Below are positions 286 to 27,443 of a stretch of DNA of 31,340 nt, piece after piece (within the stretch, counting starts at the first letter, position 1; the number at the start of each line of letters is the position of its first letter). This DNA comes from a virus. Where the stretch lies: positions 1-31,340 of the IMG/VR virus record IMGVR_UViG_3300025379_000047; one strand, 5' to 3'. The notes beneath the pieces were generated by a model that worked only from the letters and a program-made list of their open reading frames with translations, ran no database searches and was not told where the DNA came from. The position numbers and the translations under genes are program-made.

Positions 286-3200
286 TCACTCCACTTTTCT
301 TTCTAATTCAGCTACTCGTGCTGTTAATTCTTTAATAGCCGCAAATGCTAGAGCTACTAATTTTTCATAATCAACTGCTAGAGATCCGTCAGTGCGTGTT
401 CTTACAGCCAACGGGAACGCTTTTTCAACATCTTGAGCAATAACACCAAAGTCTGTTTTTCTTTGGAAATATTCATGCTCACCGCCATGATCTCGGAGAT
501 AGTCTTGTGTCCAACTAAATGTCTTACCACCAATACTATTAACTTTATTTAAAGCTCCTTGAATGTCTTGAACATTTTCTTTGAATTTACGATCTGAACT
601 GTAAAAACCTATGATGTTACCTTCAGCAGTAATCTGTCCGTTGGCATAAGTTGGGGTATGTACAATGCCCACATAAATGGATGCGGGTTGAATATCACCA
701 CCTGGAGTAATACCTCCCACAGATCCAGTATAACCAATTGGGCCTTGTGGTCCTGCCGTTGTGCTGGCACTTCCGGTATACCCAAGTGCTGCATACGCAC
801 CATTACTACCTGTATAACCTAATCCACCGTTGGCGCCCACACTTCCAGTATAACCTTGTGTGCCAACACCAGCGGTACCTTGACTACCCGCATATCCAAC
901 AGATCCACTATAGCCCAAAGGTCCTTGACTACCGCTGTAACCATTTAGTCCTTGGCCACCAATACTGCCAGTGTAGCCTTGTGGGCCAATACTACCACTA
1001 TAGCCCAAAGGTCCTTGTGGCCCAGCCACACCTGCTGATCCTGTATAGCCCACGCTGCCAGTATATCCATTGCTGCCTGAATATCCAAATCCGCCTGTGG
1101 ATCCCGTATAACCTACCGATCCGTTATATCCTGGACTGCCCAGTGCTGAACTACCTGTGAATCCAGCACTACCAGTATAACCAAATGGTCCTGATGTGCC
1201 GCTGGAACCCCAATAACCTGCTGATCCCGTAAATCCAGTACTACCAGTATATCCTCCTACACCGCTAGTACCAGCACTACCCGCATACCCTATATCGCCA
1301 ATACTACCGTCATAGCCAGCACTACCAGTATAACCTGGAGAACCAGCACCGCCCACTAATCCAGAACTTCCTGTGTAGCCTGCGCTACCTGTAAAACCAC
1401 CACTACCTGTATAGCCAGGAGCTGTACTTGCTGATCCAGCGTAACCTTGTGATCCAGCATATCCTTGGCTACCATCAAACCCTCTAGGTCCAAGTACTGC
1501 GCCGACGTTTAAGAATCCATTGTAGTAATCACCAGGAGCAGGACCTGCTGTGCCAGTACCGCCGTTGTATACCCATAAGTCACCAGTGTCTAAGGCAATG
1601 TAGGAATCACCGTTGCTACCGCCACCTGGCAATCCCAAATATGTGGCCACTGTGCCTTTAATATTAAACGAAGTACCTTGGCTACCAGCATATCCAACGC
1701 TACCCCAATATCCAGCTGATCCAGCGTAACCTTGACTACCAGTGTAGCCTAATCCGCCCGTACTACCTGAGCTACCAGTGTAGCCCTGTGGGCCCTGTGG
1801 GCCAACACTACCTGAGTAACCAAGACTACCTGTATAGCCTGTTGGTCCAGAGATATTGCCTGAATAGATCCAAGCACTACCGTTCCACACCCATAAACTT
1901 CCGTTGGCATCCTGGCCAGTACCAGGAGTTATACTATTGTAAATGATATAGGCATCGCCTTGCGTATTTCCAAAAGCTGGCAAATTAGTATGATTCGATA
2001 CGCTGCCTTTGAAATTAATACTATTACCTTGACTACCGGTATATCCTACACTACCTGTATAACCAACACTACCAGCATATCCCTGAGGGCCAATGCTACC
2101 TGCAAATCCAATACTGCCAGTATACCCTGTTACTGTACTAGCTGATCCAGTATAACCTGAACTGCCAGCATAACCTTGACTACCAGTATAGCCAACTGAT
2201 CCAGCATAGCCTTGACTGCCGGTATATCCTTGCGGGCCTTGTGGACCTTGAATTGGTCCAACATCAACCCATCCGCTATTACTATGGGCACCGCCGTAGA
2301 CCCATAAATGGCCAGTTGTGGTATCTAAATATCCGTCGCCTATCGTGGTATCACCTGTGGCTACCAATAAGTAAACTGCTGTACCTGGTGTCGATGAGTT
2401 ACCTGTGGATCCATTACTGGTAATTGTGCCTTTGAGTGAAAGACCTGTGCCTTGGCTACCGTCATAGCCTTGACTGCCAACGTAGCCCTGTGGACCAACA
2501 CTGCCAGTATATCCAACACTACCAGTGTATCCCAAACTACCACTATAACCCAAACTACCTGCGTAGCCTTGACTGCCAGAATATCCAACTGATCCAGTAT
2601 ACCCCACACTACCACTATACCCTAAACTACCTGTATAACCTGTGTTACCAATTGAGCCTGTATAACCTGTAAAGCCGCGACTGCCAGTATATCCTAATAG
2701 CCCTTGACTACCAGCATAACCCTGTGAACCAAAATATCCTCCAAGTCCCACGCTACCTGTAAAGCCAATACTACCTATGCTACCATCATAACCTCTACTG
2801 CCAGTAAACCCTTGTATACCCTGGCTGCCTGCGTAGCCTGAATTCGGAGTATTGCCCACTGTGACTTCGTAGGTTGTTGTATTATAGTATAAAATAGTGC
2901 CTGGTAAAGTGCCTGTTAATCTAACAGGTGTTATGTAGGTACTGCTGGTTTGATTAGCAATACCGTCTACTTCATTACCTGTGGCATTGATAATAATAGT
3001 ATTGGCAGCTTGAGTATTTGATGAGGCAAAACCTGCTTTTTGTCCAATCGCTATTGAATTAGCACCTTGACCATACAATCCTGCATTAGTGCCAATAGCA
3101 ATTGCAAATGCGCCTTGACTATTATTTCCTGCGTTTAGACCAATTGCTATAGCATCAGCACCTTGATTTCCAGCTCCTGAGGTGGCACCAATAGCAATGG

Positions 3201-4815
3201 CGTCAGCACCTTGACCAAAGGAGCCCGCGTCGGTACCAATACTAATAGCTCCACCACCCTGTGCGCCTGCTCCAGCCGCTTGTCCAATAGCAATAGCCCA
3301 TTGCCCTTGCCCTTGGCTTCCAGCATATCCACCAATTGCTATGGCCTCTGGAGCTTGACTATTCAGTCCCGCAAATAGTCCAATCGCAATAGCACCAATA
3401 CCTTGATTATTTTCTCCCGCGCTAGCACCGACAGCTATAGCAGAATTGGCCTGACTAGTCTGACCAGCATACTGCCCAACAGCTATAGAACTGCTACCTT
3501 GACCAGATTGTCCCGCATTTGCTCCTACAGCTACAGAACTGTTACCTTGACTGGTCAGTCCTGCACTTGCTCCTACAGCTACAGAATTATTGCCTTGTCC
3601 AACATTACCTGCTTGAACACCAACAGCAACAGAACTGGCACTTTGACTGGTTTGGCCAGCATCTGTACCAATAGCAATAGAACTGCTGCCTTGGTTGGTA
3701 TCGCCAGCGCCTGTACCAATAGCAACTGCATTGCCTCCTTGGGAACTTGATGCCGCATTGCCTATGGCAATGGCGTTGGCGCCTTGATTACCATTTATAG
3801 CCGCTGTGGTACCGATAGCAACTGCATCAGCACCTTGGGTAATTAAACTTTGTGTGATATTAACGGCATTGCCGTTGTTGGCTTGGAAATATAAACTGGC
3901 AAGTCCGCTAGAATTTACCAGTTCTATAAATCCACCAGATACAATATTTTTAGCAACACCAACACCGCCAGCAACTATCAATGCTCCTGAATTGGTACCA
4001 ACTGTGTTGGTTGGACTGGTTAATTTTAATATGGGGCTAGTTAATGTGCCTGTATTAGGAGCAAAACTCAATCCAGCATAAATGCCTGGGCTAGCATATA
4101 CTCCAGGAGCAACAAACATGCCAGGATAAACAGTTGAACTTGATGCTGTGATTGTGCCAACAAAAACTGTGCCTGCTTGGCCAGAATATGCTGGAATAAT
4201 ACTGGCTGTGCTGATCCATGTAGCTGTATTGCCTGGACCATACTGTAGTAGATATCCAGCAGTGCCTGGAGCAATAAACGCAGTGGCGCTGGTTGCTGAT
4301 TGAATAGGAATAGCACCTGCTACTCCACCTGCTAGGTTAGTAGCATAAACTGATTGTGGTGCCGCGCTGCCTGTGTACCCAATTGGTCCTTGAACACCAG
4401 CACTGCCCGCATAGCCCTGTGGACCGGCTGGTCCTGGAGTGGTGCTGGCTGAACCTGTATATCCAGCACTGCCTGAGTAGCCTTTGCTACCAGCATAGCC
4501 CTGTGGTCCCTGTGGGCCCACACTACCTGTATACCCTTGACTACCTGTGTAGCCCTGACTACCAGTATAACCTTGTGGACCTTGTGGCCCAACACTACCT
4601 GTGTAGCCTAAACTTCCCGAATAACCTTGGCTGCCAGTAAATCCAATTGGACCCTGTGGTCCTTGCGGACCAGCTGGACCTTGTGTTTGTAATAAGGAAA
4701 CTACCTGTGGGGTAGTAAGTGTTTGTTCAACTGACTGATCTTCAACAATGAATAGGGTGGTCCCTGTTGTCGGGTTGGTCAGCTGTGGTAAATTTTGAAG
4801 ATCTTGACGGCTCAT
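286..4815 (-). CDS. Giant collagen-like tail fibre with YadA-like head repeats and S74 chaperone domain
   Basis: A 1509-residue structural protein, probably a trimeric host-recognition tail fibre. Residues 1-45 form a non-repeat N-terminus likely to attach to the virion. Then come long G-x-x tracts dominated by GYTGS and GYAGS units (about 45-165, 660-790 and 860-1380), broken by short globular inserts with WVY/LWVYNG motifs. Residues about 330-620 carry a different 14-residue-type repeat (AIAIG..AG..Q), like the left-handed beta-roll of YadA/trimeric autotransporter heads. The last ~115 residues (SSDRKFKENV... to ...LTARVAELERKVE) match the peptidase S74 intramolecular chaperone: the Ser-Asp before RKFKEN is the usual self-cleavage site and the end is coiled coil. 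A TATAAATA late promoter lies at 4842-4849. The start codon is ATG at 4815. Function by family; the receptor is unknown. Confidence 0.93.
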   Translation of the reverse strand: MSRQDLQNLPQLTNPTTGTTLFIVEDQSVEQTLTTPQVVSLLQTQGPAGPQGPQGPIGFTGSQGYSGSLGYTGSVGPQGPQGYTGSQGYTGSQGYTGSVGPQGPQGYAGSKGYSGSAGYTGSASTTPGPAGPQGYAGSAGVQGPIGYTGSAAPQSVYATNLAGGVAGAIPIQSATSATAFIAPGTAGYLLQYGPGNTATWISTASIIPAYSGQAGTVFVGTITASSSTVYPGMFVAPGVYASPGIYAGLSFAPNTGTLTSPILKLTSPTNTVGTNSGALIVAGGVGVAKNIVSGGFIELVNSSGLASLYFQANNGNAVNITQSLITQGADAVAIGTTAAINGNQGANAIAIGNAASSSQGGNAVAIGTGAGDTNQGSSSIAIGTDAGQTSQSASSVAVGVQAGNVGQGNNSVAVGASAGLTSQGNSSVAVGANAGQSGQGSSSIAVGQYAGQTSQANSAIAVGASAGENNQGIGAIAIGLFAGLNSQAPEAIAIGGYAGSQGQGQWAIAIGQAAGAGAQGGGAISIGTDAGSFGQGADAIAIGATSGAGNQGADAIAIGLNAGNNSQGAFAIAIGTNAGLYGQGANSIAIGQKAGFASSNTQAANTIIINATGNEVDGIANQTSSTYITPVRLTGTLPGTILYYNTTTYEVTVGNTPNSGYAGSQGIQGFTGSRGYDGSIGSIGFTGSVGLGGYFGSQGYAGSQGLLGYTGSRGFTGYTGSIGNTGYTGSLGYSGSVGYTGSVGYSGSQGYAGSLGYSGSLGYTGSVGYTGSVGPQGYVGSQGYDGSQGTGLSLKGTITSNGSTGNSSTPGTAVYLLVATGDTTIGDGYLDTTTGHLWVYGGAHSNSGWVDVGPIQGPQGPQGYTGSQGYAGSVGYTGSQGYAGSSGYTGSASTVTGYTGSIGFAGSIGPQGYAGSVGYTGSVGYTGSQGNSINFKGSVSNHTNLPAFGNTQGDAYIIYNSITPGTGQDANGSLWVWNGSAWIYSGNISGPTGYTGSLGYSGSVGPQGPQGYTGSSGSTGGLGYTGSQGYAGSAGYWGSVGYAGSQGTSFNIKGTVATYLGLPGGGSNGDSYIALDTGDLWVYNGGTGTAGPAPGDYYNGFLNVGAVLGPRGFDGSQGYAGSQGYAGSASTAPGYTGSGGFTGSAGYTGSSGLVGGAGSPGYTGSAGYDGSIGDIGYAGSAGTSGVGGYTGSTGFTGSAGYWGSSGTSGPFGYTGSAGFTGSSALGSPGYNGSVGYTGSTGGFGYSGSNGYTGSVGYTGSAGVAGPQGPLGYSGSIGPQGYTGSIGGQGLNGYSGSQGPLGYSGSVGYAGSQGTAGVGTQGYTGSVGANGGLGYTGSNGAYAALGYTGSASTTAGPQGPIGYTGSVGGITPGGDIQPASIYVGIVHTPTYANGQITAEGNIIGFYSSDRKFKENVQDIQGALNKVNSIGGKTFSWTQDYLRDHGGEHEYFQRKTDFGVIAQDVEKAFPLAVRTRTDGSLAVDYEKLVALAFAAIKELTARVAELERKVE

Positions 4816-10812: not shown

Positions 10813-10882
10813 AGGATGCTAACAGCAAATTTTTATACATTTGACTTTTAATCAAAACCGTAAAAATGCATCCTGTTTTATT
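10813..10882 (+). ncRNA. CAGCAA-family RNA element 1 with Lys(UUU)-like anticodon hairpin
   Basis: Closing helix AGGATGC (10813-10819) with GCATCCT (10868-10874), then GTTTTATT. After the 5' helix comes TAACAGCAAA. Inside is a 5-bp/7-nt hairpin (10840-10856) with loop CTTTTAA, identical to the loop of tRNA-Lys(TTT) at 12279; a second helix (ATTTTT...with GTAAAAAT) extends it. No T-arm or D-arm, so it is not a normal tRNA. Confidence 0.6.
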
Positions 10883-11293: not shown

Positions 11294-11360
11294 AGGATAC
11301 TAACAGCAAATCTTATATAACTTTTTTTGGTATAAAAGAAAATGTATCCTGTTTTATTTT
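11294..11360 (+). ncRNA. CAGCAA-family RNA element 2
   Basis: Closing helix AGGATAC (11294-11300) with GTATCCT (11344-11350), followed by GTTTTATTTT; TAACAGCAAA follows the 5' helix as in element 1. The inner hairpin (11317-11333) has a 7-T loop and one A-G mismatch, a weak Lys-like anticodon arm. Confidence 0.55.
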
Positions 11361-11695: not shown

Positions 11696-11764
11696 AGGAT
11701 AGCAACAGCAAACATTAAAAATCTTTTCTTGAAAAAAAGCCAAAAAATGCTATCCTGTTTTATT
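11696..11764 (+). ncRNA. CAGCAA-family RNA element 3 with Ser(UGA)-like anticodon hairpin
   Basis: Closing 8-bp helix AGGATAGC (11696-11703) with GCTATCCT (11749-11756), followed by GTTTTATT. AACAGCAAA follows the 5' helix. The inner hairpin CTTTT/AAAAG (11723-11739) has loop CTTGAAA, identical to that of tRNA-Ser(TGA) at 15365. Confidence 0.6.
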
Positions 11765-11839: not shown

Positions 11840-11853
11840 AGTTTTGTAAGTGT

Positions 11854-11997
11854 CAGCAAGAGAATGTCACGCTATCTAGGTAAGTTCGAACTACCGAAAT
11901 AGTAGAAGGGGACGGGTTCAACTCCCGAGGGATCGGAAGATCCTTGCAGATTGGTTGCTAACTGGACTAGTATCCCAAGTGACGGATCTTGACCCTG
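11854..11997 (+). ncRNA. Candidate Y RNA with permuted tRNA-like module (YrlA-like)
   Basis: A stem CAAGA-x4-GTCAC (11857-11870) pairs with GTGAC-x3-TCTTG (11979-11991), and CAG/CTG may extend it. Enclosed, in order: T-arm-like CGGG TTCAACT CCCG (11913-11927), a 7-bp acceptor-like helix closed by GGAA (11928-11945), and a D-arm-like GCAG...TTGC hairpin with GG in its loop (11946-11958). T-arm, closed acceptor and D-arm in that order is the signature of YrlA tRNA mimicry. It begins with the CAGCAA motif seen in the other elements (11854-11859). Confidence 0.5.
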
Positions 11998-12198
11998 CCG
12001 GCTTTATTACAAGGGAAAATGGTTGCGATATGAGTGACGCAACGACTTACAAATTCAACAGACCCCGCTTGCTAGTGTGCGTCATCACTAGCACAATTTT
12101 TAACAAGGAGAATGACATGAAACGTGGTAAACGTTAGTGTCAGCCTTGACCCCGTATTGGTCCTGGTTGGCACATTAAATCAATTTTAATACGACCAA
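11998..12198 (+). other. Structured non-coding stretch with a six-codon ORF
   Basis: Hairpins: GTTGCG/CGCAAC (12022-12043), GCTAGTG/CACTAGC (12071-12092), AACGT/ACGTT near 12120-12136 and TGGTTGG/CCAACCA closing about 12164-12201. Between them AAGGAG (12105-12110) lies 6 bases before an ATG that encodes MKRGKR and stops at 12137. The last hairpin overlaps the first bases of tRNA-Lys and may shape its processing. No larger gene seen. Confidence 0.4.
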
Positions 12199-13429: not shown

Positions 13430-13556
13430 AGGATACGCCCAGCAAAGTCATTTATGACACGTTGGTTCGATTCCAACATTTGGCTTCATGCCAGATTCGC
13501 TCAGCGGTTGAGCAAAGGCCTAAACAGCCTTCGTAAAAAACGTATCCTGTTTTTTC
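13430..13556 (+). ncRNA. Candidate YrlA-like Y RNA / circularly permuted tRNA (CAGCAA-family element 4)
   Basis: Closing helix AGGATACG (13430-13437) with CGTATCCT (13541-13548) and a T-rich 3' tail; CAGCAA at 13440. Then hairpin GTCAT/ATGAC; T-arm GTTGG TTCGATT CCAAC (13461-13477); a 7-bp acceptor helix ATTTGGC/GCCAGAT closed by a 5-base loop (13478-13496); TC; D-arm GCTC AGCGGTT GAGC (13499-13513); A; anticodon-like arm AAGGC CTAAACA GCCTT (13515-13531). All four tRNA arms are present but permuted, with the break in the variable loop. It lies upstream of a Ro60-like gene. Confidence 0.7.
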
Positions 13557-13565
13557 CAAATTGTA

Positions 13566-13594
13566 TTGACACAAGTCTGTGTTTCACATACAAT
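13566..13594 (+). promoter_or_regulatory. Sigma70 promoter for the Ro60-like gene
   Basis: TTGACA 13566-13571 and TACAAT 13589-13594 with a 17-base spacer. The transcript would start near 13601 and include RNA elements 5 and 6 as its 5' region. Confidence 0.75.
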
Positions 13595-13628: not shown

Positions 13629-13799
13629 AGGATCGGTTCAGCAATCTTAATCTACTTAAGAACTGTTAGACACTGTGGTAGTCCGTTGGAGCGAAGCACG
13701 TAAAACTGCCTAGCGTTGAAGGCGGCTATTGAAGCAAGACTAACAAGCTCAGAGTGATGGCCTGAGTAAAATAAAAGCAGTCGACAACGATCCTGTTTG
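13629..13799 (+). ncRNA. CAGCAA-family RNA element 5, large structured RNA
   Basis: Closing helix AGGATCG (13629-13635) with CGATCCT (13788-13794), then GTTTG. CAGCAA at 13639-13644 is followed at once by a 5-bp hairpin CTTAA/TTAAG, the same order as in element 4. Inside, TGTTAG near 13664 pairs with CTAACA near 13739, and CTCAG/CTGAG forms a hairpin near 13749-13765. About 165 bases; no tRNA arms recognised. It may be a longer Y RNA or a leader module. Confidence 0.5.
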
Positions 13800-13808
13800 A
13801 ATTTATAT

Positions 13809-13870
13809 AGGTTAAGTTCAGCAACATTTTTTCACTCATAATGAAATCAACCGCCGCAAGGCATTAACCT
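13809..13870 (+). promoter_or_regulatory. CAGCAA-family RNA element 6 in the 5' leader of the Ro60-like gene
   Basis: Closing helix AGGTTAA (13809-13815) with TTAACCT (13864-13870). CAGCAA at 13819. An inner 5-bp/7-nt hairpin (13830-13846) has loop CTCATAA, identical to tRNA-Met at 10733, and GCC-GCAA-GGC forms a tetraloop hairpin. The 3' side of the closing helix ends 2 bases before the AAGGAG ribosome site, so protein binding could block translation (autoregulation, inferred). Confidence 0.6.
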
Positions 13871-13884
13871 GAAAGGAGCCAATC

Positions 13885-15288
13885 ATGGCAACATTTGTAG
13901 AAGCAGTAGCAAATCAAGAAGCCCGTACTGCCAATGGTATGAAGGCCCGCAAGTCCTCAGCTAATGCTGTAGTAGACTTGTTTTACAATATCGGTGCTAG
14001 TCGTGGCAAGGACATTGTTCCTGCCTTTACAGCCGCTTTGGTGGCTGATCGCGAACTAGCACTTCGTATCGCACTATGGGCACGTGATGCTCGTGGTGGA
14101 GCAGGTGAACGTGAATTGTTCCGTTCAATCCTGAAGTATCTGGAAACTAACGACAAGATGGCAGTAATGTCACTGTTGAAGAAGATTCCAGAATTGGGTC
14201 GCTGGGACGACATCTTTGTCTTTACTGACCCAGATGTTAAGAAGGCCGCTTACACAATGCTAGGTGACGCTCTTCGTGAGAAGAACGGCTTGGCTGCTAA
14301 GTGGACTCCACGTAAGGGTGAAGTGGCACGTGAAATCCGTGAATTCTTTGGTATGAGCCCAAAGTTCTACCGTAAGAGTCTAGTAGCACTTACCAAGGTC
14401 GTTGAAACACAAATGTGTGCCAAGGACTGGGATAACATCAACTTTAGCCATGTGCCAAGTGTAGCGGCTAGCCGTTACAAGAAGGCATTTAACCGTAACA
14501 CTACAAAGTTCGCCGAGTATGTTGCGAGTTTGGTTAAGGGTGACCCAACCGTAAAGGTAAATGCTTCGGCAATTTTCCCTTACGATGTCTTGAAGAATGT
14601 TGCCTATGGTAACTTCAACAAGACAGAAACTGATTTGATCGTTGCTCAATGGGAGGCTTTGCCTAACTATGTGGGCGACGCAAACATCCTACCACTGGTT
14701 GACGTTAGCGGTTCTATGTCCAGCCCAGCAGGCAAGAACACTAAGGTCACTTGTATGGATGTAGCAGTTTCACTAGGTTTGTACTTGGCTGAAAAGAACA
14801 CTGGCAAGTTCAAGGACACGTTCCTAACTTTCAGTGACCGTCCAGAACTCTTGACCCTAAAGGGTAACGTAGTTCAAAAGATGGCCCAAATGGTTAAGTC
14901 CGATTGGGGCATGAGTACTAACCTACACGCGGCTTTCAGCAAGATCCTTGATGTTGCTGTGAAGGGCAATGTTCCACAAAGTGAAATGCCAGAAATGGTT
15001 TTGATCTTGAGTGACATGCAGTTCAACCAATGCGTAAAGCATGACTCTTCAGCAATGGAGATGATTGAACGCAAGTACGAAGCCGCAGGCTACGCTGTAC
15101 CACAAGTTGTTTTCTGGAACCTAAACAGTTCAGATAACGTGCCTGTTAAGTCAGACAAGAGTGGTGCCGCACTAGTGTCAGGTTTTAGCCCAGCTATTGC
15201 CAAGGCACTATTGGCCGCAGACATGAGTGAATTCACACCAGAAGGCATCATGTTGAAGACTGTGATGAGCGATCGTTACAGCTTCTAA
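13885..15288 (+). CDS. Ro60-like protein (TROVE/DUF2828 with vWA domain)
   Basis: 467 residues. The N-terminal ~265 residues are helical with 'ALWARDARGGAGERELFR', 'IPELGRWDDIFVF' and 'DWDNINFSHVPSVAASRYKKAF', hallmarks of DUF2828, the TROVE-related HEAT-repeat family. The C-terminal part is a von Willebrand A domain with a complete MIDAS: D273-V-S275-G-S277, T345 and D377. Ro60/Rsr proteins form a ring that binds misfolded RNA and Y RNAs and work with exonucleases in RNA quality control. Start ATG 13885 has AAAGGAG 7 bases upstream. The upstream leader carries two copies of the RNA motif family, and a Y RNA-like element lies 330 bases upstream, supporting an RNA-binding role. A hairpin and terminator follow. 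TROVE versus DUF2828 cannot be settled by eye. Confidence 0.88.
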   Translation: MATFVEAVANQEARTANGMKARKSSANAVVDLFYNIGASRGKDIVPAFTAALVADRELALRIALWARDARGGAGERELFRSILKYLETNDKMAVMSLLKKIPELGRWDDIFVFTDPDVKKAAYTMLGDALREKNGLAAKWTPRKGEVAREIREFFGMSPKFYRKSLVALTKVVETQMCAKDWDNINFSHVPSVAASRYKKAFNRNTTKFAEYVASLVKGDPTVKVNASAIFPYDVLKNVAYGNFNKTETDLIVAQWEALPNYVGDANILPLVDVSGSMSSPAGKNTKVTCMDVAVSLGLYLAEKNTGKFKDTFLTFSDRPELLTLKGNVVQKMAQMVKSDWGMSTNLHAAFSKILDVAVKGNVPQSEMPEMVLILSDMQFNQCVKHDSSAMEMIERKYEAAGYAVPQVVFWNLNSSDNVPVKSDKSGAALVSGFSPAIAKALLAADMSEFTPEGIMLKTVMSDRYSF

Positions 15289-15364: not shown

Positions 15365-15456
15365 GGAAGGTAATGCAGCGGGGATGGTCCTGCGACTGGC
15401 CTTGAAAACCAGGTTCTCTTAACAGGGATGGAGTTCGACTCTTCTGCCTTCCGCCA
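15365..15456 (+). tRNA. tRNA-Ser(TGA)
   Basis: Class II: acceptor GGAAGGT/GCCTTCC, arm CTGGC/ACCAG, loop CTTGAAA, long variable arm, discriminator G, CCA encoded. Confidence 0.95.
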
Positions 15457-23151: not shown

Positions 23152-24315
23152 ATGAAAAAACTAGCAATCATTGGCCGAGGTACAGCAGGATGTTATGCCA
23201 TAGCATATTTTTTAAAAAGTACCAATTGGAATATTGATTGGTATTTTGATCCCAATGTGGCTCCACAGAGTGTGGGTGAAGGCTCCACCGTGGAATTCCC
23301 CACTAATTTAGATCAATTCTTGGGATTCAAATTACCACAACTAGACAGTGTAGACGGCACATTCAAAGCAGGTATTAAAAAACAGGGTTGGGGATCAGGC
23401 AAAGAGTATTATCACCTATTTCCATCCGGTACTGTGGCCTATCATTTCAATGCGGTCAAACTACAGGAATGGATCATAAATTATGCCGGCAGTCAAAGCC
23501 GGGTAAAAATTATCAACAATAACATAAAAGCCTATAATGATATTGATTCTGATTTTGTTCTAGACTGTTCAGGTAGACCCAGCGAAAATGAACTACAACA
23601 CTTTCATCTTCCCCAAACTATTCCGGTTAATGCTGTTCATGTTACTCAATGTTATTGGGATATTCCAAGATTTCAATATTCACTGAACATTGCCAAAAAA
23701 CACGGGTGGGTTTTTGGTATTCCCCTACAAAACAGATGTAGTATTGGTTATTTGTATAACCATAAAATCAATACCATAGACGAAGTCAAGGAAGATGTTC
23801 AATCAATTTTTGATCAGTATGGTTTGACACCCAGCGAAACTACCAATAGTTTCACATTTAATAATTACTACCGTAAACAAAACTTTTATGGTCGAGTGGC
23901 ATTTAATGGTAATGCCAGTTTCTTTTTAGAACCCCTAGAAGCCACATCAATTGCCTGTATGAATGTGGTAAATGTCATGGCACATCGTCACTGGACTGGG
24001 CGGAGCGAAAATTCCAACAAAGTATACTATGATTATATCAACCGACTGGAAGACATGATCATGCTACACTACTACAAGAATGATATGTATGATAGTGATT
24101 TTTGGAAGTTTGCCACAGAACGCGGCCAGGCACGTATCAAAGAAACCATACGCAAACAAAACATATTTAGATCTGTGATCAAATACGCAATAGATGACAG
24201 CGATATAAATCCCTTACTTGAAGGATATGGGTACGGAACGTGGGGTCAAATATCCTATACAGCAAACATCAAAGGCATGGGACTGGCTCAGGATCTATCA
24301 CCATTAATACAATAA
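23152..24315 (+). CDS. Flavin-dependent halogenase (tryptophan-halogenase family), copy 1
   Basis: 387 residues. FAD-binding GRGTAG (G8-x-G10-x-x-G13), GEGST at 42-46, the catalytic Lys K72 in DGTFKAGIKK (equivalent of Lys79 of PrnA), DCSG at 138-141, GWVFGIP at 185-191 and FLEPLEATS near 258-266. The W-x-W-x-I-P motif of classical halogenases is W-x-F-x-I-P here. The family uses reduced flavin, O2 and halide to form a Lys-haloamine that halogenates an electron-rich substrate. The viral member VirX1 from a cyanophage prefers iodide and also lacks the classical motif. No flavin reductase gene is seen nearby; the substrate is unknown. Confidence 0.93.
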   Translation: MKKLAIIGRGTAGCYAIAYFLKSTNWNIDWYFDPNVAPQSVGEGSTVEFPTNLDQFLGFKLPQLDSVDGTFKAGIKKQGWGSGKEYYHLFPSGTVAYHFNAVKLQEWIINYAGSQSRVKIINNNIKAYNDIDSDFVLDCSGRPSENELQHFHLPQTIPVNAVHVTQCYWDIPRFQYSLNIAKKHGWVFGIPLQNRCSIGYLYNHKINTIDEVKEDVQSIFDQYGLTPSETTNSFTFNNYYRKQNFYGRVAFNGNASFFLEPLEATSIACMNVVNVMAHRHWTGRSENSNKVYYDYINRLEDMIMLHYYKNDMYDSDFWKFATERGQARIKETIRKQNIFRSVIKYAIDDSDINPLLEGYGYGTWGQISYTANIKGMGLAQDLSPLIQ

Positions 24316-24330
24316 TAATTAAATATTGCC

Positions 24331-25548
24331 ATGAGTAAAATAAAATTAGCAGTTATTGGACGCGGTACTGCCGGAGCTTATGGTGTCAGTCATTTTTTAA
24401 AAAGCACCAAATGGGAAATCGATTGGTACTTTGATGCCAAGCAACCGCCACAGGCAGTGGGAGAAGGATCTACTTTGGAATTTCCCATACAGTTATTCCA
24501 TAACATGGGATTTACCTATAGCGATCTAGAAAAGATAGATGGCACTCCTAAACTTGGAATTCAAAAATCAGGTTGGGGCAGGGACGGTGCTGAATTCATG
24601 CATTGGTTTAGCGCAGGGTTCAATGCCTATCATTTCAATGCCAATAAGCTACAAGACTACATTTTAGATTATGTACAAGCATCTCCTAGAGTAAAAATTA
24701 TCGATCAGAGAGTTACCAGCTATGATGATATAGATGCCACTTATATCTTGGATTGTTCAGGAAAACCCGGAGAGGATGACCGAGATCAATTTGTCATGTC
24801 AGATTACATTCCTGTTAATTCAGTACACGTCACACAATGTTATTGGGATGTCGCAGAATTTCATTATTCACTAAATCTTGCTAGAAAACATGGCTGGGTA
24901 TTTGGCATTCCATTACGCAATAGATGTAGTATTGGGTACCTATATAACAATAATATATCTACACTAGATGAAATCAAGGAAGATGTTCAAGAAGTATTTG
25001 GCCGTTACAGGTTAACACCCAGTGACCATACCAATACTTTTAATTTTAGAAACTACTATAGAAAACAAAACTTTTATCCTAGACTGTGTTATAATGGCAA
25101 TGCTAGTTATTTCCTAGAACCAATTGAAGCTACTTCAATTTATTTCATGGATATCATACAGTGGGCCGCCGAAGCTGTTTGGAAAGAAGGCAAACACTAC
25201 AGTCTAGCCAATATAAAATATGAAAGACTGATTAAAGAAATGGAAACTATGATCATGTTCCACTACTTTAAGAATCAAGTCTACGAAACAGAATTTTGGC
25301 GGTTTGCCACAGAACGTGGAGTCAGAGGTATTAAAAAATCTCTAGCAGAAGATCCCATGTTCAGAGGAGTAGTGACAAGGATCGTTAATCCCAAATGGGA
25401 ACATCCTGATATTTCAACAAAAATTCCTCCAGGATATGCTACATGGGCTGAACCATCATTCCATTTACATATGGAACAACTAGATGTTAGACAAGAATTA
25501 ATTCAGCTATTAGAAGATACTAAAGATAACAATGCGGGTATGATGTAA
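24331..25548 (+). CDS. Flavin-dependent halogenase, copy 2
   Basis: 405 residues, a close duplicate of copy 1 (GRGTAGAYGVSHFLKSTKW, GEGSTLEFP, GTPKLGIQKSGWG with K74, DCSGKPGEDD, GWVFGIPLRNRCSIGYLYN, FLEPIEATS). The start has no clear ribosome site, as in copy 1, and sits 15 bases after its stop. The last codons (DNNAGMM) overlap tRNA-Gly(GCC) by 15 bases, so tRNA processing would cut the mRNA inside the stop region. Likely similar chemistry on a related substrate. Confidence 0.93.
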   Translation: MSKIKLAVIGRGTAGAYGVSHFLKSTKWEIDWYFDAKQPPQAVGEGSTLEFPIQLFHNMGFTYSDLEKIDGTPKLGIQKSGWGRDGAEFMHWFSAGFNAYHFNANKLQDYILDYVQASPRVKIIDQRVTSYDDIDATYILDCSGKPGEDDRDQFVMSDYIPVNSVHVTQCYWDVAEFHYSLNLARKHGWVFGIPLRNRCSIGYLYNNNISTLDEIKEDVQEVFGRYRLTPSDHTNTFNFRNYYRKQNFYPRLCYNGNASYFLEPIEATSIYFMDIIQWAAEAVWKEGKHYSLANIKYERLIKEMETMIMFHYFKNQVYETEFWRFATERGVRGIKKSLAEDPMFRGVVTRIVNPKWEHPDISTKIPPGYATWAEPSFHLHMEQLDVRQELIQLLEDTKDNNAGMM

Positions 25549-25607
25549 TGGTAACCTACAACTTTGCCAAAGTTGATTTGCGAGTTCGATTCTCGCTACC
25601 CGCTCCA
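25534..25607 (+). tRNA. tRNA-Gly(GCC)
   Basis: Acceptor GCGGGTA/TACCCGC, arm CAACT/AGTTG, loop TTGCCAA, discriminator T, CCA encoded. Its first 15 bases overlap the 3' end of halogenase copy 2. Confidence 0.94.
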
Positions 25608-25611
25608 TATT

Positions 25612-26256
25612 ATGACTTATAAAATTAAGCCGACTACAGATAATTTTAAGACTCATATGTTGTTTCCCACAGTGGTGGCAACTGTGGATAACACATCGAT
25701 CCCAAGACAGGATCATGAGTTAGTATTAAATTCAGAGTATGTGGTTCAAAGTAAGTACGGCGCATTTCCTACTACCAAGAACAAACGCATATTAGACACC
25801 GTGCCATCTATAAAAGCATGGATACAACTTCAGTTGGACAAATATGCTAGAGATATCATGGGTTCGGAAAAATTACAGTTCACACAAAGTTGGGCAATTA
25901 AACACGAAAATATACCGCAAAGCATTTTCACACATTCGCATGCCAATTCAATTATCAGCGGCAGTTATTATATTGATGCTCCCACAGGCAGTGAAGCATT
26001 GACCTTTATCAAACCATCTTATGTTGGTGGCGGTCCAGTCGTTGAGTACGAAAAAGATTTCCAAAATAAACCTTGGCTATATGACGAAATTAAATTTGGT
26101 GCTAACACTGGCCGTCTTATTTTATTCCCCAGTAATCTACAACATGCCGTGATGGGGTATCAAACCATGCGTCAACGTAGATGTGTATTGGCATTTAACA
26201 CTTGGTTTGCTGGACCGATTGGCACCGAAGAAGGATTGACAAGGTTAGAACTATGA
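25612..26256 (+). CDS. 2OG-Fe(II) oxygenase, TIGR02466/2OG-FeII_Oxy_5 type, beside halogenases
   Basis: 214 residues from ATG 25612, only 4 bases after tRNA-Gly; the ORF continues upstream through the tRNA but that part is not coding. 'QSIFTHSHANSIISGSYYIDA' gives H108-S-H110 and the SG-x-YY-I family motif; 'GRLILFPSNLQHAVMGYQ' gives H178; R190 may bind 2-oxoglutarate. The stop overlaps the start of halogenase copy 3 (ATGA), so oxygenase and halogenase are co-translated. This suggests that both act on the same substrate or pathway. Confidence 0.9.
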   Translation: MTYKIKPTTDNFKTHMLFPTVVATVDNTSIPRQDHELVLNSEYVVQSKYGAFPTTKNKRILDTVPSIKAWIQLQLDKYARDIMGSEKLQFTQSWAIKHENIPQSIFTHSHANSIISGSYYIDAPTGSEALTFIKPSYVGGGPVVEYEKDFQNKPWLYDEIKFGANTGRLILFPSNLQHAVMGYQTMRQRRCVLAFNTWFAGPIGTEEGLTRLEL

Positions 26257-27443
26257 AAAAGCGTATAGCAGTAATTGGCGTAGGCACTGCAGGTATTATT
26301 TCCCTGTGTGAATTGTTGCCCTATATGACAGACAATTGGGACGTATACAGCATATTTGATTCTAATAAGCCTATATTAGGAATTGGAGAAAGTACCAATC
26401 CTAATTTTATTATGACTCTACAGGATGCCACAAGGTTTCAATTCGCTGACTTAGATTTATTGGATGGTACACTAAAATTTGGAACTCGTTACAAGAGATG
26501 GCGAGAACACGATTTTGTAAATCCCTTATTTGGCGCAGGCTATGCTGTACATTTTAACAATTTTGAACTTAAAGAATTTGCTTTTGAAAGGTTCCATAAA
26601 TTTTGGCCAAACAAGTTTAAAGAAATGCATGGCACAGTGTCTGAAATTATTCCTGGAAAAAAATCAGCACAGATTGTGATTGATGGTAGGACTGAAGAAT
26701 TTGACTATGTCATTGACTGTATGGGCTTTCCCAATGACTATAAAGACTACAACATGTCCAATTGTAGCCCAGTTAACCACTGTATTGTATATTCTTTGCC
26801 CACTGGCAATTATGATCAGTATACTGACCATGTGGCCATGAACGCAGGTTGGATGTTTGGAATTCCCCTTCAGTCTAGACATACCTACGGATATTTGTTT
26901 AATGATGTTAAATCCAAACGAGAAGATGTTATAGAAGAAATGGGTGAGTATTTAAATACCAAATTAGATCCAGCTCAAATTAAAGAATATCAATTCCAAT
27001 CTTATTATGCCAAAAAAGCCTATGAGGGTCGAGTATTAAAAAATGGCACCAAGGCGTTCTTTCTAGAACCACTGAGTGCTAGTTCGATATTTTTTTACAT
27101 ACAGAATGTTAAAACTTTTACTGACCATTTGGCCGCCCCTGATAAGTTTGATGAAAACTACGTCAACGAAATGTTTGAAATATATTCAGAAAATTTAGAA
27201 GATTTACTCAGCTTCTTTTATCATGGTGGATCCATATTGGACACAGAATTTTGGCGACATGCTAAGACATTGGGTCAGAACAGATTAAAGAAAAGTAGAA
27301 TGTTAAGTCACGTGTCCAATGAACTAAAGAAGAATGGTGCCATAGGACTATTAAACGAAGGCCCAAAGTGGTTCTTCAATCCCATGTCGCTTCGATTAGT
27401 TGATGAAAATATGGGCTACAACTACTTTAAAGTTCCAAAATAA
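26253..27443 (+). CDS. Flavin-dependent halogenase, copy 3 (divergent)
   Basis: 396 residues from ATG 26253, in a 4-base overlap with the oxygenase; the frame upstream overlaps that gene and is not used. GVGTAG (9-14), GIGESTNP, catalytic K75 in DGTLKFGTRYKRW, DCMGFP, GWMFGIPLQSRHTYGYLF at 199, and FFLEPLSASS near 269-278. It is more distant from copies 1 and 2: the second Glu of EPLE is Ser. Substrate and halide unknown. A terminator follows. Confidence 0.9.
   Translation: MKKRIAVIGVGTAGIISLCELLPYMTDNWDVYSIFDSNKPILGIGESTNPNFIMTLQDATRFQFADLDLLDGTLKFGTRYKRWREHDFVNPLFGAGYAVHFNNFELKEFAFERFHKFWPNKFKEMHGTVSEIIPGKKSAQIVIDGRTEEFDYVIDCMGFPNDYKDYNMSNCSPVNHCIVYSLPTGNYDQYTDHVAMNAGWMFGIPLQSRHTYGYLFNDVKSKREDVIEEMGEYLNTKLDPAQIKEYQFQSYYAKKAYEGRVLKNGTKAFFLEPLSASSIFFYIQNVKTFTDHLAAPDKFDENYVNEMFEIYSENLEDLLSFFYHGGSILDTEFWRHAKTLGQNRLKKSRMLSHVSNELKKNGAIGLLNEGPKWFFNPMSLRLVDENMGYNYFKVPK

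What the first reader, a model, noticed from the sequence alone, without database searches (positions are those of the whole stretch)
13430..13548. RNA with all four tRNA arms in permuted order next to a Ro60-like gene
The order T-arm, closed 7-bp acceptor helix, D-arm and anticodon-like arm, inside an 8-bp closing helix, is not a normal tRNA. It matches YrlA-type bacterial Y RNAs (tRNA mimics that bind Ro60/Rsr), or else a circularly permuted tRNA gene, which is not established for phages. The loop CTAAACA gives an unlikely anticodon (AAA), favouring the mimic.
Basis: partly seen in the sequence, partly recalled or inferred. Interest (0 to 1): 0.92.

Follow-up and report, generated by a model that had tools for sequence, protein, structure and literature searches.

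The report
Phage Y RNAs that imitate tRNAs
A phage encodes a small RNA that is a scrambled, sealed copy of a transfer RNA next to a gene for a Ro60-like RNA-binding ring protein, and it proves to be one of a large, widespread phage family of RNAs that share one docking stem and display all or single parts of a tRNA.

Summary
Window 13430-13548 folds as described (z -4.9). Related RNAs in other phages keep the fold through compensatory changes. It is not a decodable tRNA: there is no CCA end, and the loop is not conserved in sequence or length. The neighbouring protein is DUF2828/DUF7788, not TROVE by Pfam, but its AlphaFold model (pLDDT 93) matches only Ro60/TROVE structures at E<0.001. The RNA is best explained as a Y RNA (tRNA mimic) of this phage Ro protein.

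It is one of six elements in the window with the same chassis: helix, 2-4 nt, CAGCAA, insert, helix. In 160 loci chosen only by the protein, 121 carry such an element on the gene strand nearby. Conversely, 18/18 and 43/48 contigs of at least 50 kb found by the chassis alone encode the protein. Thirty-five distinct RNAs carry permuted tRNA arms; 32 have native acceptor pairing, against 4.5% when strands are swapped. Small elements often carry a lone anticodon-like hairpin (67 against 2.5 in shuffles).

Tethering or decoy function is inferred. Phage Y RNAs as such are known. The CAGCAA chassis, lone anticodon arms and multi-copy set look new, but the key 2014 paper could not be read.

The parts
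13430..13548 (+). Permuted-tRNA Y RNA: closing helix 13430-13437/13541-13548, CAGCAA at 13440-13445, T-arm 13461-13477, sealed acceptor 13478-13496, D-arm 13499-13513, anticodon-like arm 13515-13531
   Evidence: fold, related RNAs and compensatory pairs, covariance model hits in other contigs
13549..13555 (+). GTTTTTT run directly after the closing helix: probable intrinsic terminator shared with the Y-RNA stem
   Evidence: sequence; the terminator scan did not call it because it allows loops of 3-8 nt only
13885..15288 (+). Phage Ro protein (phrog_850; DUF2828 + DUF7788), 467 aa, Ro60-fold ring with vWA/MIDAS domain
   Evidence: AF2 model pLDDT 92.8; Foldseek: 1yvr E 4e-8, 2i91, 9l5y, 2nvo
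10813..10874 (+). Chassis element with a lone anticodon-arm-like hairpin TTTGA-CTTTTAA-TCAAA (UUU)
11294..11350 (+). Chassis element, AGGATAC-TAA-CAGCAA..GTATCCT, hairpin with TTTGG (D-loop-like?)
11696..11756 (+). Chassis element with anticodon-arm-like hairpin CTTTT-CTTGAAA-AAAAG (UGA)
13629..13794 (+). Larger chassis element (166 nt, AGGATCG-GTT-CAGCAA..CGATCCT) in the leader of the Ro gene; relatives in other phages
13809..13870 (+). Chassis element directly before the Shine-Dalgarno of the Ro gene, hairpin TTTCA-CTCATAA-TGAAA (CAU); candidate autoregulatory site
   Evidence: an element sits at this place in nearly all close relatives
13566..13594 (+). Sigma-70-like promoter TTGACA-17-TACAAT ahead of the leader elements and the Ro gene
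   Evidence: consensus match, 11 of 12

Best explanation
13430-13548 encodes a roughly 120-nt Y RNA, a non-decoding tRNA mimic, that works with the phage Ro protein encoded at 13885-15288. The basal helix with the CAGCAA internal loop is the common chassis by which the Ro ring is most likely bound, and with the T run it also ends the transcript. The upper part is a whole tRNA in permuted order with a sealed, CCA-less acceptor, so it can bind tRNA-recognising proteins but cannot be charged or used. Shown: structure, covariation, chassis family, tight linkage to a Ro-fold gene. Inferred: binding of Ro to the chassis, and the role of the mimic as a tether or decoy for a tRNA-recognising enzyme (an RNA-decay enzyme such as PNPase, or a tRNA-cutting host nuclease), with the leader element giving feedback on the Ro gene.
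For: Fold z -4.9. Compensatory pairs in the acceptor, closing and anticodon-like helices. Chassis: 143 CAGCAA elements against 5 for all non-overlapping permutations of the hexamer. In 160 loci selected by protein only: 288 elements against a mean of 31 per permutation, 266 on the gene strand against 22 on the other, 121/160 loci within -2.5..+4.5 kb. Chassis alone finds the Ro gene: 30/39 contigs, 18/18 of those at least 50 kb; with a different helix sequence 43/48. 35 distinct permuted RNAs, acceptor at least 6/7 paired in 32, against 4.5% after swapping strands. Ro fold: AF2 pLDDT 92.8; the 9 PDB matches with E<0.001 are all Ro60/TROVE/Rsr. T5, which has a tRNA array and no phrog_850, has no chassis element on the tRNA strand of its array.
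Against: No transcript or binding data for these RNAs. In Listeria phage CKA15 (PMC12282133) the most transcribed non-coding region near its Ro homologue (26,236-26,727) has no CAGCAA element; the elements lie at 25,290-25,552. Four named phages with the gene (KVP40, GAP32, DLP_6, Astolliot) and 39 of 160 protein-selected loci show no convincing gene-strand element near it. Pfam TROVE and Rfam YrlA are not matched.
Confidence: 0.8

Rival explanations
1. Circularly permuted tRNA gene: the transcript is cut at the sealed acceptor and religated at the other end to give a working tRNA, as in red algae.
For: 3' half precedes the 5' half with exact tRNA geometry, U8/R9 and GG in the D-loop; some relatives have NCCA after the acceptor (L183 GCCAACAAAATT, L297 GCCAATT, L328 ACCAACTAT); some have well-formed anticodon loops (L029 GCA, L050 UCU, L103 UAU, L174 GAA).
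Against: Most acceptor loops are 3-8 nt without CCA (window TTCAT); the anticodon-like loop varies in sequence and length among close relatives; the same chassis also carries lone hairpins that cannot become tRNAs.
Confidence: 0.07
2. Anticodon decoy: the chassis RNAs mainly present anticodon arms to soak up host anticodon nucleases or A37-modifying enzymes during infection; the full permuted tRNA is one form of decoy.
For: 67 small inserts with a YUNNNAR 7-nt loop against 2.5 in shuffles; N36 is U or A in 86/96 YU loops, against 18/33 real tRNAs of the window. The loops recur in unrelated phages (Aeromonas UUU/CAU, Campylobacter GCU, mycobacteriophage GCU). A competitive-inhibitor role was proposed for YrlA by Hughes et al. 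(PMC7790460).
Against: The window RNA itself has a degenerate anticodon-like loop; more than half of the small inserts show no such loop; no target is known; elements are not phylogenetically independent.
Confidence: 0.3
3. Degenerate remnant of a tandem tRNA array (3' half of one tRNA, 5' half of the next) without function.
For: It lies in a dense tRNA array, and tandem junctions superficially resemble the YrlA model (17.4 bits).
Against: Acceptor halves pair with each other across the junction and covary in 32/35 distinct RNAs; the chassis is conserved; there is association with the Ro gene in distant phages.
Confidence: 0.03

Closest known systems
YrlA (Rfam RF02553), bacterial tRNA-mimic Y RNA
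   Same: T-arm, sealed acceptor hairpin, D-arm in permuted order inside a basal stem; beside a Ro60-fold gene
   Different: Rfam score far below threshold (17.6 against 69); in the YrlA consensus the anticodon position is a short stem leading into the Ro-binding stem, here a separate anticodon arm exists and the basal stem carries CAGCAA; several copies per genome, some with only one tRNA arm
Phage Y RNAs reported for mycobacteriophages and suspected in Listeria phage CKA15 (PMC12282133, citing Chen et al. 2014)
   Same: Y RNAs near Ro homologues in phages; the CKA15 protein is of the same family
Ro60/Rsr (TROVE) proteins; Thermus phage phiLo Ro60 (PDB 9l5y)
   Same: Fold of the 13885-15288 protein (Foldseek E 2e-7 to 4e-8), vWA domain with DxSxS
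   Different: Sequence family is DUF2828/DUF7788 (phrog_850); none of 85 members matches Pfam TROVE
Permuted tRNA genes of red algae
   Same: 3' half precedes 5' half
   Different: No CCA, no conserved anticodon, chassis with terminator

Membership tests
YrlA (RF02553) | Reaches Rfam gathering score 69 | tested here: not met
   17.6 bits, partial match 30-81/114; none of 13 phage loci with such RNAs reaches it
YrlA (RF02553) | T-arm, closed acceptor, D-arm in that order within a basal stem | tested here: met
YrlA (RF02553) | Basal stem continuous with the anticodon-position stem | tested here: not met
   Separate anticodon-like arm plus linker before the basal helix against Rfam consensus
Y RNA (functional class) | Encoded with a Ro60-fold protein | tested here: met
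Y RNA (functional class) | RNA binds the Ro protein through its basal stem | not testable with these tools
   Needs binding assay; the conserved CAGCAA chassis is the predicted site
Y RNA (functional class) | Effector domain recruits or gates a partner (PNPase in D. radiodurans) | not testable with these tools
   PMC8394870, PMC7790460 for the precedent
Ro60/TROVE protein | Pfam PF05731 TROVE | tested here: not met
Ro60/TROVE protein | Ring-forming helical-repeat plus vWA fold of Ro60 | tested here: met
   AF2 pLDDT 92.8; the 9 PDB hits with E<0.001 are all Ro60/TROVE/Rsr
Ro60/TROVE protein | MIDAS residues of the vWA domain | tested here: met
   D273, S275, S277, T345, D377 invariant in 85 sequences
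Permuted tRNA gene | CCA end after acceptor and conserved decoding anticodon | tested here: not met
   TTCAT loop; variable arm loop
Permuted tRNA gene | Processing to a circular or religated tRNA | not testable with these tools
   Needs RNA-seq or northern blot

The most novel reading that the evidence does not exclude
Phage Ro proteins carry a modular set of chassis RNAs, each displaying one part of a tRNA (most often an anticodon arm of the A37-hypermodified type, N36 = U or A) or the whole permuted tRNA, and so act as a programmable tRNA-part display that shields or redirects host tRNA-processing or tRNA-cutting enzymes during infection.
Probability: 0.35. Interest if true: 0.92.

Novelty: new variant of a known kind. 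Interest (0 to 1): 0.8.

Why it matters
It turns a single odd RNA into a recognisable RNA family with a simple signature (helix, CAGCAA, helix) that marks the probable partners of a Ro protein found in at least 677 phage genome records, including phages of E. coli, Salmonella, Listeria and mycobacteria. It gives DUF2828/DUF7788 phage proteins a testable role and links Ro biology, tRNA arrays and tRNA-directed phage-host conflict. It also raises the question why phages show the cell lone anticodon arms.

Tried and rejected
Rfam scan for a known family: apart from tRNAs and one tmRNA (L174), nothing above threshold. BLASTN of the RNA against phage genomes: only tRNA pieces, so the family is not visible by plain sequence search. 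Unbiased inverted-repeat hexamer enrichment was swamped by tRNA stems and was replaced by a hexamer-permutation control. First AlphaFold run without alignment was poor (pLDDT 41) and was not used. A genome-contig scan for close protein relatives found none. The idea that the abundant ncRNA of Listeria phage CKA15 is one of these elements was tested and not supported. T5 stable tRNA-like RNAs were examined as possible members: no chassis, and T5 has no phrog_850. The pattern required TTCAT and the T-arm, so constancy of those parts in A3 is by construction; searches do not share that bias. A stricter reading of the chassis in KVP40, GAP32, DLP_6 and Astolliot found nothing convincing.

Full report
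What is there. The fold is far better than dinucleotide shuffles (z -4.9, 0 of 200). A short hairpin GUCAUUUAUGAC precedes the T-arm, and GUUUUUU follows the closing helix. ARAGORN does not call it. The Rfam YrlA model gives 17.6 bits, far below its threshold of 69 and no better than a junction of two tandem tRNAs (17.4), so that score proves nothing.

Relatives. Pattern and protein searches of viral contigs gave versions with other sequences. In seven distinct close relatives the acceptor changes from AUUUGGC/GCCAGAU to UCCACGC/GCGUAGA, one closing pair from A-U to C-G, and one anticodon-arm pair from A-U to U-A; 97.8% of cells pair, against about 33% when strands are slid. A covariance model found more distant members in other contigs at 47-123 bits. 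In several of these (L029, L050, L102, L103) a normal-looking anticodon arm (loops CUGCAAA, CUUCUAA, CUUAUAA) stands 5' of the T-arm, so the break in the circle lies between D-arm and anticodon arm. In the window RNA the arm with seven-base loop stands 3' of the D-arm and its loop is not kept in relatives (CUAAACA, CUCAAAA, UUAAACA, UUAAAAA, or fewer than seven bases). It does not decode.

The chassis. All members share the same frame: helix (often AGGnnnn/nnnnCCU), 2-4 bases, CAGCAA, insert, often an A-rich run, the other helix strand, then G and a T-rich run. The same frame occurs with other inserts. In the first set of loci 143 distinct AGG..CCU elements contain CAGCAA; all permutations of the hexamer that do not overlap it give 5 together. 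The window has six: 10813-10874, 11294-11350, 11696-11756, 13430-13548, 13629-13794, 13809-13870, all on the strand of the tRNAs and of the Ro gene. The last ends immediately before the Shine-Dalgarno sequence of that gene, and close relatives have an element in the same place.

The protein. 13885-15288 matches DUF2828 and DUF7788 and phrog_850 'RNA-binding protein', not TROVE; 85 of 85 family members behave the same. An AlphaFold2 model from 85 window and viral-contig sequences has mean pLDDT 92.8. Foldseek against the PDB gives nine matches with E below 0.001, all of them Ro60, TROVE or Rsr structures, including Ro60 of Thermus phage phiLo. The MIDAS residues of the vWA domain are invariant.

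Linkage in both directions. 160 loci were chosen by protein similarity alone. They contain 288 CAGCAA elements, against a mean of 31 for other permutations (22% of CAGCAA sites are in such a helix, against 5% of control sites); 266 are on the gene strand and 22 on the other; 121 loci have one on the gene strand between 2.5 kb before and 4.5 kb after the gene start. Starting from the RNA, 30 of 39 contigs found by the AGGATAC chassis pattern carry the gene, and 18 of 18 that are at least 50 kb; a different helix sequence (AAGACAC) gives 43 of 48 contigs of at least 50 kb. Named phages with elements beside the gene include Escherichia phage ekra (Felixounavirus), mycobacteriophages UPIE and DuncansLeg, Enterococcus EFDG1, Listeria LP-048, Staphylococcus S-CoN_Ph3, Campylobacter CP30A, Aeromonas LAh_9, Synechococcus BUCT-ZZ01 and Cronobacter S13. 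In Citrobacter Ci1 and Cronobacter S13, tRNA-like genes in normal order carry a hairpin and CAGCA between D-arm and anticodon arm, the same junction. Escherichia phage T5, with a large tRNA array and no phrog_850, has no chassis element on the tRNA strand of the array.

Permuted RNAs are common. Thirty-five RNAs with distinct acceptor strands have T-arm and D-arm in permuted order inside the chassis; in 32 the acceptor strands pair at six or seven of seven positions, while strands swapped between RNAs do so in 4.5% of cases. U8, the base at 9 (A, G or T allowed), and GG in the D-loop were required by the search; the acceptor pairing was not. Acceptor loops are mostly 3-8 bases; a few contain NCCA, so a processed form is not excluded for those.

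Lone arms. Of 336 small inserts, 160 have a hairpin of five or more pairs with a seven-base loop, and 67 of these are YUNNNAR loops, against 2.5 (at most 6) in shuffled inserts. In the protein-selected set the figures, with four-pair stems allowed, are 25 of 162 against 3.5. Among loops that start YU, position 36 is U or A in 86 of 96, against 18 of 33 for real tRNAs in the window. Codons read by such loops begin with A or U, the class whose A37 is usually t6A or i6A modified (general knowledge). Elements are related by descent, so counts overstate independence, but the same loops occur in unrelated phages (Aeromonas LAh_9, Campylobacter CP30A, mycobacteriophage DuncansLeg). Inserts with UUGGU (D-loop-like) and GGUUC (T-loop-like) are also enriched.

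How it probably works. In known Ro systems a Y RNA binds Ro by its basal stem and presents another domain to a partner; in bacteria the tRNA-like YrlA module is modified by DusA and TruB, and in D. radiodurans the Y RNA tethers Rsr to PNPase (PMC8394870). Hughes et al. suggested that YrlA may competitively inhibit an anticodon nuclease (PMC7790460). By analogy, the CAGCAA chassis is the likely Ro-binding site and the tRNA parts are the bait. Which partner is bound is unknown; tether to an RNA-decay enzyme and decoy for tRNA-directed enzymes are both open. The element before the Shine-Dalgarno site suggests feedback by Ro on its own gene. None of these last steps is shown.

Known or new. Phage Y RNAs and Ro homologues have been reported: PMC12282133, citing Chen et al. 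2014, for mycobacteriophages; PMC7765460 for several phages. For Listeria phage CKA15 the authors propose Y RNAs near the Ro homologue CKA15_055, which is also found in purified particles. The chassis elements of CKA15 lie at 25,290-25,552, just upstream of that gene, but the most transcribed region reported (26,236-26,727) is not one of them. What I could not find described is the CAGCAA chassis, its multi-copy nature, and the anticodon-only forms. Chen et al. 2014 and the review by Sim and Wolin could not be opened, so part of this may be known.

Verdict. A real, structured, conserved tRNA-mimic RNA; a Y RNA by context and architecture, not a member of Rfam YrlA; a new variant of a known kind, with an unexpectedly broad family around it.

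Noticed in passing
13629-13794 and relatives (e.g. L057 4523, L076 244): A 166-nt structured RNA in the same chassis with conserved GGAGC/GUUGAAGG-like parts, no tRNA likeness and no Rfam match; longer forms of about 230 nt follow it in relatives.
   Followed up: partly
11843-12053; L102 625: A 211-nt element with GT-CAGCAA inside a 9-bp helix that differs between phages (TTTGTAAGT/ACTTACAAA against TTTGTCAGT/ACTGGCAAA); contains a T-loop-like piece.
   Followed up: no
L163 6012-6125, L165 5896-6138: Citrobacter Ci1 and Cronobacter S13 'tRNA-OTHER' genes: tRNAs in normal order with a hairpin plus CAGCA inserted between D-arm and anticodon arm, i.e. the unpermuted counterpart of the permuted RNAs.
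   Followed up: partly
L088 6347-6527, L021 1174-1377: Permuted RNAs whose sealed acceptor is extended into a long hairpin.
   Followed up: no
15368-15456: A tRNA-Ser-like sequence with loop CTTGAAA (UGA) that ARAGORN does not call.
   Followed up: no
23152-27443: Tryptophan-halogenase-like genes in a row (23152 matches the Pfam family; 24331 and 26202 look similar, not scanned), with several 2OG-Fe(II)-oxygenase-like genes among tRNA genes of a phage.
   Followed up: no
286-4815 (-): A 1509-aa collagen-like GxYTGS repeat protein, probably a tail fibre (not tested).
   Followed up: no
G097, G121, G130, G079: In some contigs the Ro gene is split into two separate matches, possibly by frameshift, insertion or the contig ends.
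   Followed up: no
Listeria phage CKA15 (L339, record 26,236-26,727): A very abundant non-coding transcript near the Ro gene (PMC12282133) without a CAGCAA chassis; its nature is open.
   Followed up: partly
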